Assembly: GCA_903813345.2 (NCBI GenBank)
Contig: CAIIXF020000012.1
Location: 29,586,184 to 29,650,183 of the forward strand
Length of the DNA stretch: 64,000 nt
Reading direction: 5' to 3'
Source: Owenia fusiformis
Taxonomy: Eukaryota; Annelida; Polychaeta; Sabellida; Oweniidae
The first letter of the stretch is position 1. The number at the start of each line of letters is the position of its first letter. Shown here one piece after another: positions 33,892 to 51,529 of this stretch. The position numbers and the translations under genes were made by a program. Below the pieces are notes generated by a model, which ran no database searches, was not told where the DNA came from, and saw nothing but the letters and a program-made list of their open reading frames with translations.

Positions 33892-36800
33892 CTAGAGTCT
33901 TTTCTTGATCAACTTTTCTAGTTTTTTGATTCTGCTTGATTCCTGGTCAGGCTGAGCTCCCGCTCTCTGTTGAGGGGGTCTCTGATTCATAGTAGGACCT
34001 CCGGGGCCAGGGGAAGGTATTCTACTGCGATAAATGTCCAACATTGCACTTTGATCATTACGCTTCAAACCCTGGAATAGATTTTCATATGACATTATTA
34101 TTTATAATATGCCTGTCAAGTAAAACAAGTAAAAAATAAAAAATCTGGATATTTTTTTTCAAAAAACTGGGTTATTTTTCTGGAAAATCAGGAGAAAGTC
34201 AGGAATTTTATTAAAAAATTAGGGAGAAAAATAGGCATTAGTAAAACAAATGGAGAATTAAAAAATTGGAAGAAATCAGGATTTTTTCTAAAAATGGGGG
34301 ATACTGGTGGAAAATCGGATTTTCTGAAAAATATTGAAAATTCTGGAGTTTTTCCTCTGATTTAAATTGGGACTCATCATGATCAACCATGACATCTCAT
34401 TTCTTCTCAGCCCTGAGATGCCATGATATAATGAGCTTGATTTGGCGATCTAGGAGAGCCCAAAATTGAGGATTTTTGAGATCTTTCATCTCAGCTCATA
34501 TTTCATCTAATTAGGGTCATAAAACTTGTGTACCTGTACCTGTTCTAATACCTGCTGTTGGGACTTGACAGGTGAGTTATAGTATTGATAGAATTGTGAG
34601 TGCTCTTTGAATTATATCAGAGAGTGAGCAATTGAAACTTTAGAAGAATGAGACCTCACTTTCATCAATGATTTTCTGTAAATTATTTATGTCATGCTCT
34701 AAAAGTAACTTACCTTCATCTCGAGGACTTTCTGGAAATCATTTTTGTCATGCTCTGAGAGTAACTTCATAATAGAAATCAAGATAAGTAAAAGAGCCAT
34801 GCCATGCTCAGAAAGTAACTTCCCTTCATCTCAAGGACTTTCTGGAAATCATTTATATCATGTTCCAAGAGTACCTACCTTCATCTCAAGGACTTTCTGG
34901 AAATCATTTATGTCATGCTCTGACAGTAACTTGATGTAGTTATCAACGAATCCCTGGGGTGGATCATGTGGCGACATGACAACCTTCAATATCATCTCTG
35001 CCTTCGTCATGCCCTTCACAACTATCTTTGTGTAACTGAAATAAGGCACATGGATATTTATTATGTCATTCAACCAATGAACGGATGATGAGAGGGAGAT
35101 GTAAACTTAAAAATTTGTATTTTTTAGTTTAATTATATTATGCTTGGTCTACCTTGCTGGTGCTTTATGTCCCACTTGTGAACCAAGAAGGGGGAGGACT
35201 TTTAGTCCCGATAGATCAATCCGGTAAATCATGCTATTTATCGGTTATGATGTCATTCTTACAATTTCAGTGCAGAAATAAGATAAAAATATTGCTAATT
35301 TTCAAAAACTTCTTTCAATTTTGTTTACATTGCTGCCTGCAAAGTATGACATCATAAATCTAGCCAATATACCTTAGTTTCCTTGGTTCACAAATAGGGG
35401 TCAGGATTTATTGGAAAGGTCCATTGTGAGTTGAGAGAGGGGGACTTATCTAGTCGATGCTTTATGTCGCACTTGTGAACCAATGAAGGGAGAACTTACC
35501 TTGCTGGTGCTTTACGTCCCACTTGCGAGCCCAGAGATGGGAGGTCTAGGAGGACTGTTTTCAGGGAGTGGGTGTCCAGCAACAACTGCTCTGCCCCCAC
35601 AGTGCTTATAGGGCGACATCTATAGATATTGTTGATAAACTTTGGAATGAAAGAGCTGAAAATGAAAAGGGAACATTCATGATCAAATACAATTATGGTT
35701 AATGTATTTCGATAATGATAATTTGATGTTATCAGAGTTCAATCTACAGGGTTTTAATTAAGTACTGATCAACATTTCAAGTCTGCCTAATCCGATCCGA
35801 ATGCCTATGGATCACCCTAAAGTGTTCCGATTAACAGGTGTTCACACTTCAAGTTTTTGTAAGTCAGTGAAAGATGACTGAGAAAAAGTGTTCACATTGA
35901 GAGATATTTGGATAAGAGAGGTGTTTGGATAAAGGATTTAAGTGCATTGTTTGCTGAATCATACCATGAAGGTGCTGTTTCCAAACCTTTGCATGACCAC
36001 ACAGCTGGAATGCAAAGTTTTGGAAACAATGCCTGAGTGGAATGAAGCAGCTACAATGCATTGAGTCTTGGGCTTAAATTCTTTTCACTTATTGCAATTT
36101 TTTTTCTATAAAATCATCTAAAAGGAATGAAATCACTAAAAGAACACGTTTTCAATGACATTTTTTGCAAGGATCAAGTTGGCAAGTCATCAAATCCAAT
36201 GTGAAAAATCCATTCATTACCATGACAGCTGTTTAACTGGTGACCTTGCATGTGTTATTGATATTTCACACACTGTTCAAGATGTGAATACTCTATTCGG
36301 ATTGGCTGGAATCAGACACACCTTGCCTAGCTATGGGTGAATAAGGTTTCACTTTACTCTTTAATAAATTGTTTGAATCTAAAGCAAGCCAGAATGAGGA
36401 ATCTTACTTGGCAAACTTGATGTTGAACTGTGTGAAGTATTTCCTAGAATATGCCAGGTTGTCTCTAATGATGGACAGGTTCTGCTTTAGGTGTGCTATG
36501 ATTGTGCTAACGTAACTACTCTGGTCTCCAACTGACTCCATGTTATTCCATGACATCTGCAAAATAACAAACAATGCAATCTAGGTGTGCTTCTAGGTGT
36601 GCTATGATTGTGCTCACATAACTACTCTGGTCCCCAACTGACTCCATATTATTCCATGACATCTGCAAATTAACAAACAATGCAATCTAGGTGTGCTTCT
36701 AGGTGTGCTATGATTGTGCTCACATAACTACTCTGGTCCCCAACTGACTCCATATTATTCCATGACATCTGCAAAATAACATAATAATAGTTCACACTGT

Positions 36801-51529: not shown

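What the first reader, a model, noticed from the sequence alone, without database searches (positions are those of the whole stretch)
33892..51529. Exon-edge minisatellites: splice junctions repeatedly amplified into introns
Seven of the 19 VPS53 exons (2, 3, 8, 9, 16, 17, 18) and one of eight TMX2 exons have an edge that is the seed of a tandem array. Every unit contains coding bases, the splice site and some intron, and the copies extend into the intron only. Acceptors are amplified at exons 2, 3, 9, 16 and TMX2 exon 7; donors at exons 8, 17 and 18. Periods are 61, about 125, 113, 77, 118 and 59 bp; the exact ones are not multiples of 3, so retaining one extra unit would shift the frame. Only one array in these genes (40.7 kb) avoids an exon. 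Junction-spanning minisatellites have, as I recall, been described in amphioxus; so many in adjacent genes suggests a process targeted to exon borders (for example break repair or R-loops at splice sites), not random slippage.
Basis: partly seen in the sequence, partly recalled or inferred. Interest (0 to 1): 0.88.

Follow-up and report, generated by a model that had tools for sequence, protein, structure and literature searches.

The report
Splice-junction tandem repeats in an annelid
In a marine worm, the ends of many protein-coding exons have been copied over and over into the neighbouring intron, so that a gene such as VPS53 carries up to a dozen near-identical false splice sites next to a real one; this was known from a few lancelet genes and turns out to be frequent in the sampled genes here.

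Summary
VPS53 (19 exons, 850 aa, minus strand) has clean tandem arrays seeded by exon ends at exons 2, 3, 8, 9 and 16, diverged ones at 17 and 18; TMX2 exon 7 has one. The structures are "mirages", described before in several amphioxus genes. In a sample chosen without regard to repeats (52 segments, 263 kb, 212 annotated exons of CCT, kinesin and proteasome genes) 18 of 55 arrays straddle an exon end; random placement predicts 6.9 (2.6-fold, P 2e-5; about 2.2-fold under stricter cut-offs). The excess is strongest in homogeneous, young arrays, which argues against slow decay of exon-anchored copies. Random placement still explains over a third of the cases, unit ends do not sit at the junction, and donors and acceptors are both hit, so "targeted to splice sites" is only partly supported. 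In VPS53, 39 of 42 scored decoy copies keep AG or GT, and use of any of the 39 would create a premature stop; splicing must normally pick the innermost site, most simply by exon definition. No RNA or population data could be used.

The parts
33892..51529 (-). VPS53 gene, ATG to stop, 19 exons, 850 aa
   Evidence: exons joined in frame, GT..AG introns, one terminal stop; named VPS53 by recalled human sequence
47441..47677 (-). array of the exon 2 acceptor, 61 bp, 3.9 copies, 43 coding bp at the exon side
   Evidence: TRF; probe copies; 3 of 3 scored decoy AG intact
46231..46924 (-). array of the exon 3 acceptor, steps of 121-128 bp, about 5.6 copies, 9 coding bp
   Evidence: 5 of 5 scored decoy AG intact
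42187..43322 (-). array of the exon 8 donor, 113 bp, 10.1 copies, alternating as a 226-bp dimer, 78 coding bp
   Evidence: 9 of 9 scored decoy GT intact, all AAG|GTAGGT
41013..42004 (-). array of the exon 9 acceptor, 77 bp, 12.9 copies, 34 coding bp
   Evidence: 11 of 11 scored decoy AG intact (a twelfth, partial copy seen was not scored)
36488..37600 (-). array of the exon 16 acceptor, 118 bp (innermost step 106), about 9.7 copies, 69 coding bp
   Evidence: 9 of 9 scored decoy AG intact
35145..35534 (-). diverged copies of the exon 17 donor at +50 and +347, not a regular array
   Evidence: not called by TRF; 1 of 2 decoy GT intact
34655..34915 (-). diverged copies of the exon 18 donor at +55, +165, +221
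   Evidence: not called by TRF; 1 of 3 decoy GT intact
20060..20430 (-). array of the TMX2 exon 7 acceptor, 59-bp period, about 40 coding bp per unit
   Evidence: TMX2 named by recalled human sequence
40686..40860 (-). the one purely intronic VPS53 array of score over 100 (82 bp x2.1, intron 9)

Best explanation
These are junction-spanning minisatellites ('mirages') in Owenia fusiformis. Shown: segments of roughly 20-160 bp that straddle an exon end stand in tandem, only the copy next to the exon is part of the coding exon, and this occurs at roughly 4% of annotated exon ends in sampled genes, about twice to almost three times as often as random placement predicts. Inferred: duplications arise all over genes and are expanded and homogenised by unequal exchange or slippage; those that straddle an exon end survive because the extra copies fall into the intron and the spliceosome picks the innermost copy of the site, the one that makes the shortest exon with the opposite splice site (exon definition). 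Exon ends are moderately favoured as birth places or as places where arrays are kept young; the cause of that bias is not shown.
For: VPS53 arrays end inside the exon and run only into the intron. Pooled sample of CCT, kinesin and proteasome segments: 18 of 55 arrays straddle an annotated exon end, 6.85 expected, P 1.6e-5; period >=30: 15 of 49 vs 6.98, P 0.0013; period >=40 and score >=150: 14 of 36 vs 6.48, P 0.0015; arrays with >=93% match: 11 of 23 vs 3.92, P 2.7e-4 (P values not corrected for trying several cut-offs). Introns with both splice sites modelled: 10 of 20 arrays touch or overlap an exon vs 5.3, P 0.005. Of 20 sampled arrays at or near an exon end read at base level, 16 have a plausible splice site inside the array, several with the same motif again one unit away. 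In the exon 8 array copies alternate between two types with a 226-bp step, as unequal exchange of a dimer would leave. 39 of 42 scored decoy copies in VPS53 keep AG or GT; 0 of those 39 sites would give an open frame, so their use cannot be the normal outcome.
Against: No RNA data: choice of the innermost site is deduced from the frame, not seen. Proteasome genes alone: 2 of 9 vs 1.20, P 0.34; diverged arrays with period >=30: 4 of 26 vs 3.08. In the splice-modelled introns kinesin genes alone show nothing significant (3 of 10 vs 2.0, P 0.26; 2 of 15 vs 1.90, P 0.66), and CCT and kinesin together with period >=50 give 5 of 9 vs 3.31, P 0.15. Exon annotation rests on HMM matches and scripted splice choice, unrefined for the proteasome genes. 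Several arrays come from the same few genes.
Confidence: 0.72

Rival explanations
1. No bias at all: a tandem-repeat-rich genome with short introns; units placed at random often hit an exon end, and the striking genes were picked because they are striking.
For: Random placement predicts 6.85 of the 18 edge arrays and 2.4 where 5 of 6 TRF arrays of score >=100 touch an exon in VPS53. Position of the junction in the unit is compatible with uniform. Kinesin and proteasome genes alone are not significant in some of the tests.
Against: Pooled excess 2.1-2.6 fold with P 0.0015 to 1.6e-5; CCT and kinesin each below P 0.05 at all three cut-offs.
Confidence: 0.22
2. Survivorship: a duplicate anchored in a constrained exon diverges from it at half the speed of two free intronic copies, so exon-end arrays stay detectable longer.
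For: Would give up to about a two-fold excess without any targeting; old arrays with period >=20 show 7 of 32 vs 2.93.
Against: It predicts the excess mainly among old arrays; found is 11 of 23 vs 3.92 in young ones and 4 of 26 vs 3.08 in old ones at period >=30.
Confidence: 0.06
3. Functional decoys: the arrays tune VPS53 output by unproductive splicing into outer copies and decay of the product.
For: 39 of 42 scored decoy sites intact and every one of the 39 leads to a premature stop.
Against: Retention is equally expected from homogenisation of young copies; unit length shows no frame rule (6 of the 16 sampled periods with a located splice site are multiples of 3); no RNA evidence either way.
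Confidence: 0.09
4. Assembly artefact or collapsed/expanded repeats.
For: Tandem repeats are error-prone in assemblies.
Against: Copies differ by ordered variants (dimer pattern), the reading frame of the gene is perfect, VPS53 arrays are at most about 1.1 kb, and the published assembly is PacBio-based (PMC9977687 passages).
Confidence: 0.03

Closest known systems
Amphioxus 'mirages' (Adh3, troponin C, globins BflGb6 and BflGb9, PGBD5)
   Same: Tandem duplications spanning an exon-intron boundary, at 5' or 3' ends of exons, units of about 10 to 160 bp, many but not all copies keeping AG/GT (passages of PMC3087553 and PMC3902484).
   Different: Different phylum (annelid); seven exon ends of one gene; a measured frequency and excess over random placement. 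In amphioxus RT-PCR suggests normal splicing and haplotypes differ in copy number; neither was testable here.
Intron gain by tandem genomic duplication of an AGGT segment
   Same: Tandem duplication that creates new potential splice sites (PMC3443670 passages).
   Different: Here the intron already exists and is lengthened; no new intron was shown.
Variable internal tandem repeats at exon-intron boundaries of human segmentally duplicated genes
   Same: Tandem repeats located at exon-intron boundaries (PMC2812944 passages).
   Different: Those cases are in recent paralogs and can change splicing; here VPS53 keeps an unbroken frame with its innermost sites.

Membership tests
mirage (junction-spanning minisatellite) | tandem units containing coding bases, splice site and intron | tested here: met
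mirage (junction-spanning minisatellite) | occurs at acceptors and at donors | tested here: met
   VPS53 acceptors 2, 3, 9, 16 and donors 8, 17, 18; sample both kinds
mirage (junction-spanning minisatellite) | many copies keep the AG or GT | tested here: met
   39 of 42 scored copies in VPS53
mirage (junction-spanning minisatellite) | concerted evolution inside the cluster with the boundary copy left out | tested here: inconclusive
   exon 9 copies are 88-95% like the exon copy; in exon 8 the exon copy matches alternate copies at 99%; no tree of copies built
mirage (junction-spanning minisatellite) | does not disturb normal mRNA | not testable with these tools
   no RNA reads; frame analysis only
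mirage (junction-spanning minisatellite) | copy number unstable between haplotypes or somatically | not testable with these tools
   one assembly; a probe from the exon 8 array matched only its own locus (5 matches)
intron gain by tandem duplication | a new intron absent from relatives | not tested
   no related genomes held

The most novel reading that the evidence does not exclude
Exon ends in Owenia fusiformis are true hot spots for the birth or renewal of tandem duplications, so that a few per cent of all exon ends, thousands genome-wide, carry arrays of intact decoy splice sites; the same has evolved separately in lancelets. Natural arrays of near-identical competing sites, as in VPS53 intron 8 with ten donors followed by thirteen acceptors (real ones included), then give a ready test of how the spliceosome chooses among equal sites and of how mirages feed intron change.
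Probability: 0.4. Interest if true: 0.8.

Novelty: new member of a known kind. Interest (0 to 1): 0.57.

Why it matters
If the excess holds genome-wide, this annelid has far more mirages than the handful I found reported in lancelets, in a second phylum, which turns a curiosity into something countable. It lets one ask whether exon borders are mutational hot spots, whether tandem decoy sites feed intron change as proposed for lancelet globins, and how the spliceosome picks one of ten donors with the same core and thirteen near-identical acceptors in a single intron. It also warns that gene prediction, tandem-repeat masking and exon counting can fail in such genomes: one kinesin exon end scores as 18 separate matches.

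Tried and rejected
Rejected: amphioxus origin (no GFP-family match, weak alone because none of its controls rang; window GC about 35%; decisive is the chromosome and Fox-gene match to Owenia). A COX1 search to read the mitochondrial code found nothing. The 18S search gave no answer. A search with PF00749 found 13 matches and was not used further. GC-driven repeat formation: arrays are slightly richer in GC than the rest of their introns (0.368 vs 0.336, P 0.045, 17 arrays), but this includes exon-derived copies; the nine purely intronic ones average 0.352 vs 0.333 (rows, averaged), so a small effect is not excluded. Breaks at the junction itself: unit ends are not concentrated at the junction (on values I read off). 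An early impression that the junction lies mid-unit did not pass the KS test. An early count on 55 modelled introns gave only 4 of 10 vs 1.72, P 0.057; a better exon search raised the numbers, and I report both. TMX2 exons 1-3 were sought and not found. Structure prediction and RNA-family tools were not used.

Rows dropped before counts: 43 exon pairs with weak splice choice or a large HMM gap (97 introns kept); arrays wholly inside exon matches; overlapping TRF rows merged by best score; exon matches containing stops; kinesin loci whose domain matches span more than 8.7 kb or with a single match (29 regions taken of about 38 loci grouped by eye), among them the C2 gene with 18 copies; two proteasome loci with one match (11 loci taken). 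Only the best-placed 30 of 60 CCT matches were cut out as loci; gap pieces were added.

Full report
What is there. The window holds VPS53 on the minus strand from 51529 (ATG) to 33892 (stop). I located exon peptides in the ORF list, fixed their borders at GT..AG sites and joined them: 19 exons, 2,553 nt, one terminal stop. The name VPS53 rests on recalled human sequence. TRF finds arrays at the acceptors of exons 2, 3, 9 and 16 and the donor of exon 8. Probes of 50 bp over all 36 internal exon ends have nearby matches longer than 13 bp only at these five and at donors 17 and 18. Exons 17 and 18 are diverged sets that TRF does not call. TMX2 exon 7 shows a 59-bp array at its acceptor.

Anatomy. 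In each VPS53 array the coding copy is the one next to the exon and the others lie in the intron. The coding part of the array end is 43, 9, 78, 34 and 69 bp for exons 2, 3, 8, 9 and 16. Intron 8 holds both kinds: the donor array of exon 8 (43322 down to 42187) and then the acceptor array of exon 9 (42004 down to 41013). The exon 8 copies alternate between 95-97% and 99% identity to the exon copy, a 226-bp dimer pattern, with the outermost copy at 92%. Splice dinucleotides are intact in 39 of 42 scored decoy copies; a partial twelfth decoy of exon 9 was not scored. If any of the 39 intact decoys were used, VPS53 would meet a premature stop: 14 of 39 keep the frame by length, 0 of 39 stay open.

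Which organism. The genome has 498 Mb in 525 contigs. The twelve large contigs, in the order C1, C5 to C12, C2, C3, C4, fall steadily from 62.2 to 31.9 Mb, which is what names 1 to 12 sorted as text would give (sizes). With that key, forkhead matches lie on chromosomes 1, 2, 3, 5, 6, 7, 8, 11 and 12, exactly the nine named for Owenia fusiformis in PMC9539403. Groups of four and three matches within 16 and 20 kb lie on chromosomes 5 and 7, where that paper places tandem foxQ2 genes (passages; I did not classify the matches). PMC9977687 gives 505.8 Mb and 12 chromosomes (passages). I take the species as Owenia fusiformis (Annelida) with high confidence; the identification is by map, not by sequence identity, and the total lengths differ slightly.

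Is it more than chance? Exons were taken from Pfam matches plus profiles built from these genes, refined by splice models for CCT and kinesin where possible. For each array the null places one unit at random in the segment after collapsing arrays to one unit, excluding places wholly inside exons. Pooled, 18 of 55 arrays straddle an exon end, 6.85 expected. By family: CCT 9 of 20 vs 3.03, kinesin 7 of 26 vs 2.61, proteasome 2 of 9 vs 1.20 (P 0.34). With period >=30 the pool gives 15 of 49 vs 6.98, with period >=40 and score >=150 14 of 36 vs 6.48. A stricter version, only introns with both splice sites modelled, gives 10 of 20 vs 5.3 (P 0.005) for score >=100: CCT 7 of 10 vs 3.3, kinesin 3 of 10 vs 2.0 (P 0.26). 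With another edge rule and period >=50 it gives 5 of 9 vs 3.31 (P 0.15), and kinesin alone 2 of 15 vs 1.90. A first, poorer exon set gave 4 of 10 vs 1.72 (P 0.057). P values are not corrected for the several cut-offs. So there is an excess of about two-fold, not an exclusive attraction. Eighteen arrays over 424 annotated exon ends is about 4%; VPS53 with 5 of 36 TRF-called ends is above that (P 0.026), as expected for a hand-picked gene.

Base-level check. I read 20 sampled arrays at or near an exon end for splice sites. Sixteen have a plausible site inside the array, several with the same motif again one unit further out, for example tacattgtag|GTGTTA twice 96 bp apart and tct(g/t)ttgtag|AGCATT three times 42 bp apart. 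Two have none found (C10:4881933 at 297 and C11:133365 at 3880) although an exon match ends inside them, one gave no site because no profile match lies at it (C10 at 9368) and one stops 4 bp short of its site (C222). Outside the sample, one kinesin gene on C2 has 18 copies of an exon start every 159 bp; of five copies fetched, the four further ones are 95-98% like the exon-side one and show the same ATAG|ATTCAC.

What the excess means. Slower decay of exon-anchored duplicates would favour old arrays, but the excess is 11 of 23 vs 3.92 in arrays of >=93% match and 4 of 26 vs 3.08 in the rest at period >=30; at period >=20 the rest also show 7 of 32 vs 2.93. Junction-directed breaks would put unit ends at the junction, but the exonic share of the unit is compatible with uniform (n 16, 7 and 23; P 0.26, 0.43, 0.11). 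Donors and acceptors are both common. A mild bias of duplication or renewal toward exon ends, of unknown cause, fits best. GC-rich seeding is not excluded.

How it is tolerated. The ten donors of exon 8 are identical in the nine core bases, so motif strength cannot tell the real one. What singles it out is that it makes the shortest exon with the acceptor; the same holds for innermost acceptors. This is what exon definition (established concept, recalled) would choose, and VPS53 exons are 79-240 nt. In the five TRF-called VPS53 arrays the unit holds only part of the exon. The splicing step is inference.

Relation to known things. Mirages are described from amphioxus Adh3, troponin C, globins and PGBD5 (passages of PMC3087553 and PMC3902484; the Adh3 and troponin papers were not seen). 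The testable parts of the anatomy are met here. Searches for mirages and minisatellites with amphioxus listed these two papers as the relevant ones by title and passages. Searches that found no report in Owenia or annelids: 'Owenia fusiformis' with 'minisatellite' (0 papers), tandem repeats with exon-intron boundaries and annelid (2 papers, seen as a listing and one by passages), 'Owenia' with tandem repeats and introns (3 papers, listing only). The library lacks most subscription journals, so this does not prove absence in print.

Noticed in passing
G000 C2:23266359-23269174 (L081 holds part): A kinesin exon start repeated 18 times every 159 bp (53 codons), each copy with at least 114 coding bp matching the family; it inflates exon counts in HMM tables.
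   Followed up: partly
window 17320-19319: Large 148/284-bp array rich in AAGGTCAAA-type words, with short GC-rich stretches, not tied to an identified exon.
   Followed up: no
window 24450-25272 and 26710-27416: Arrays of 301-315 bp and 146/292 bp, the second with AAAATGGCC(G/A)CC words; possibly in TMX2 introns.
   Followed up: no
G000 C222 (25 kb) and C12:35253676-35257411 (L012, L027, L013, L024, L032): A CCT gene may be split: the chromosome contig carries the first part of the domain (HMM 39-181), the small contig C222 later parts (177-454), so C222 may belong in a gap there.
   Followed up: no
G000 C6:40704107-40710484 (L053): One kinesin gene with at least five arrays in 6.4 kb, three of them on exon ends by base-level reading; hot genes like VPS53 exist elsewhere.
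   Followed up: partly
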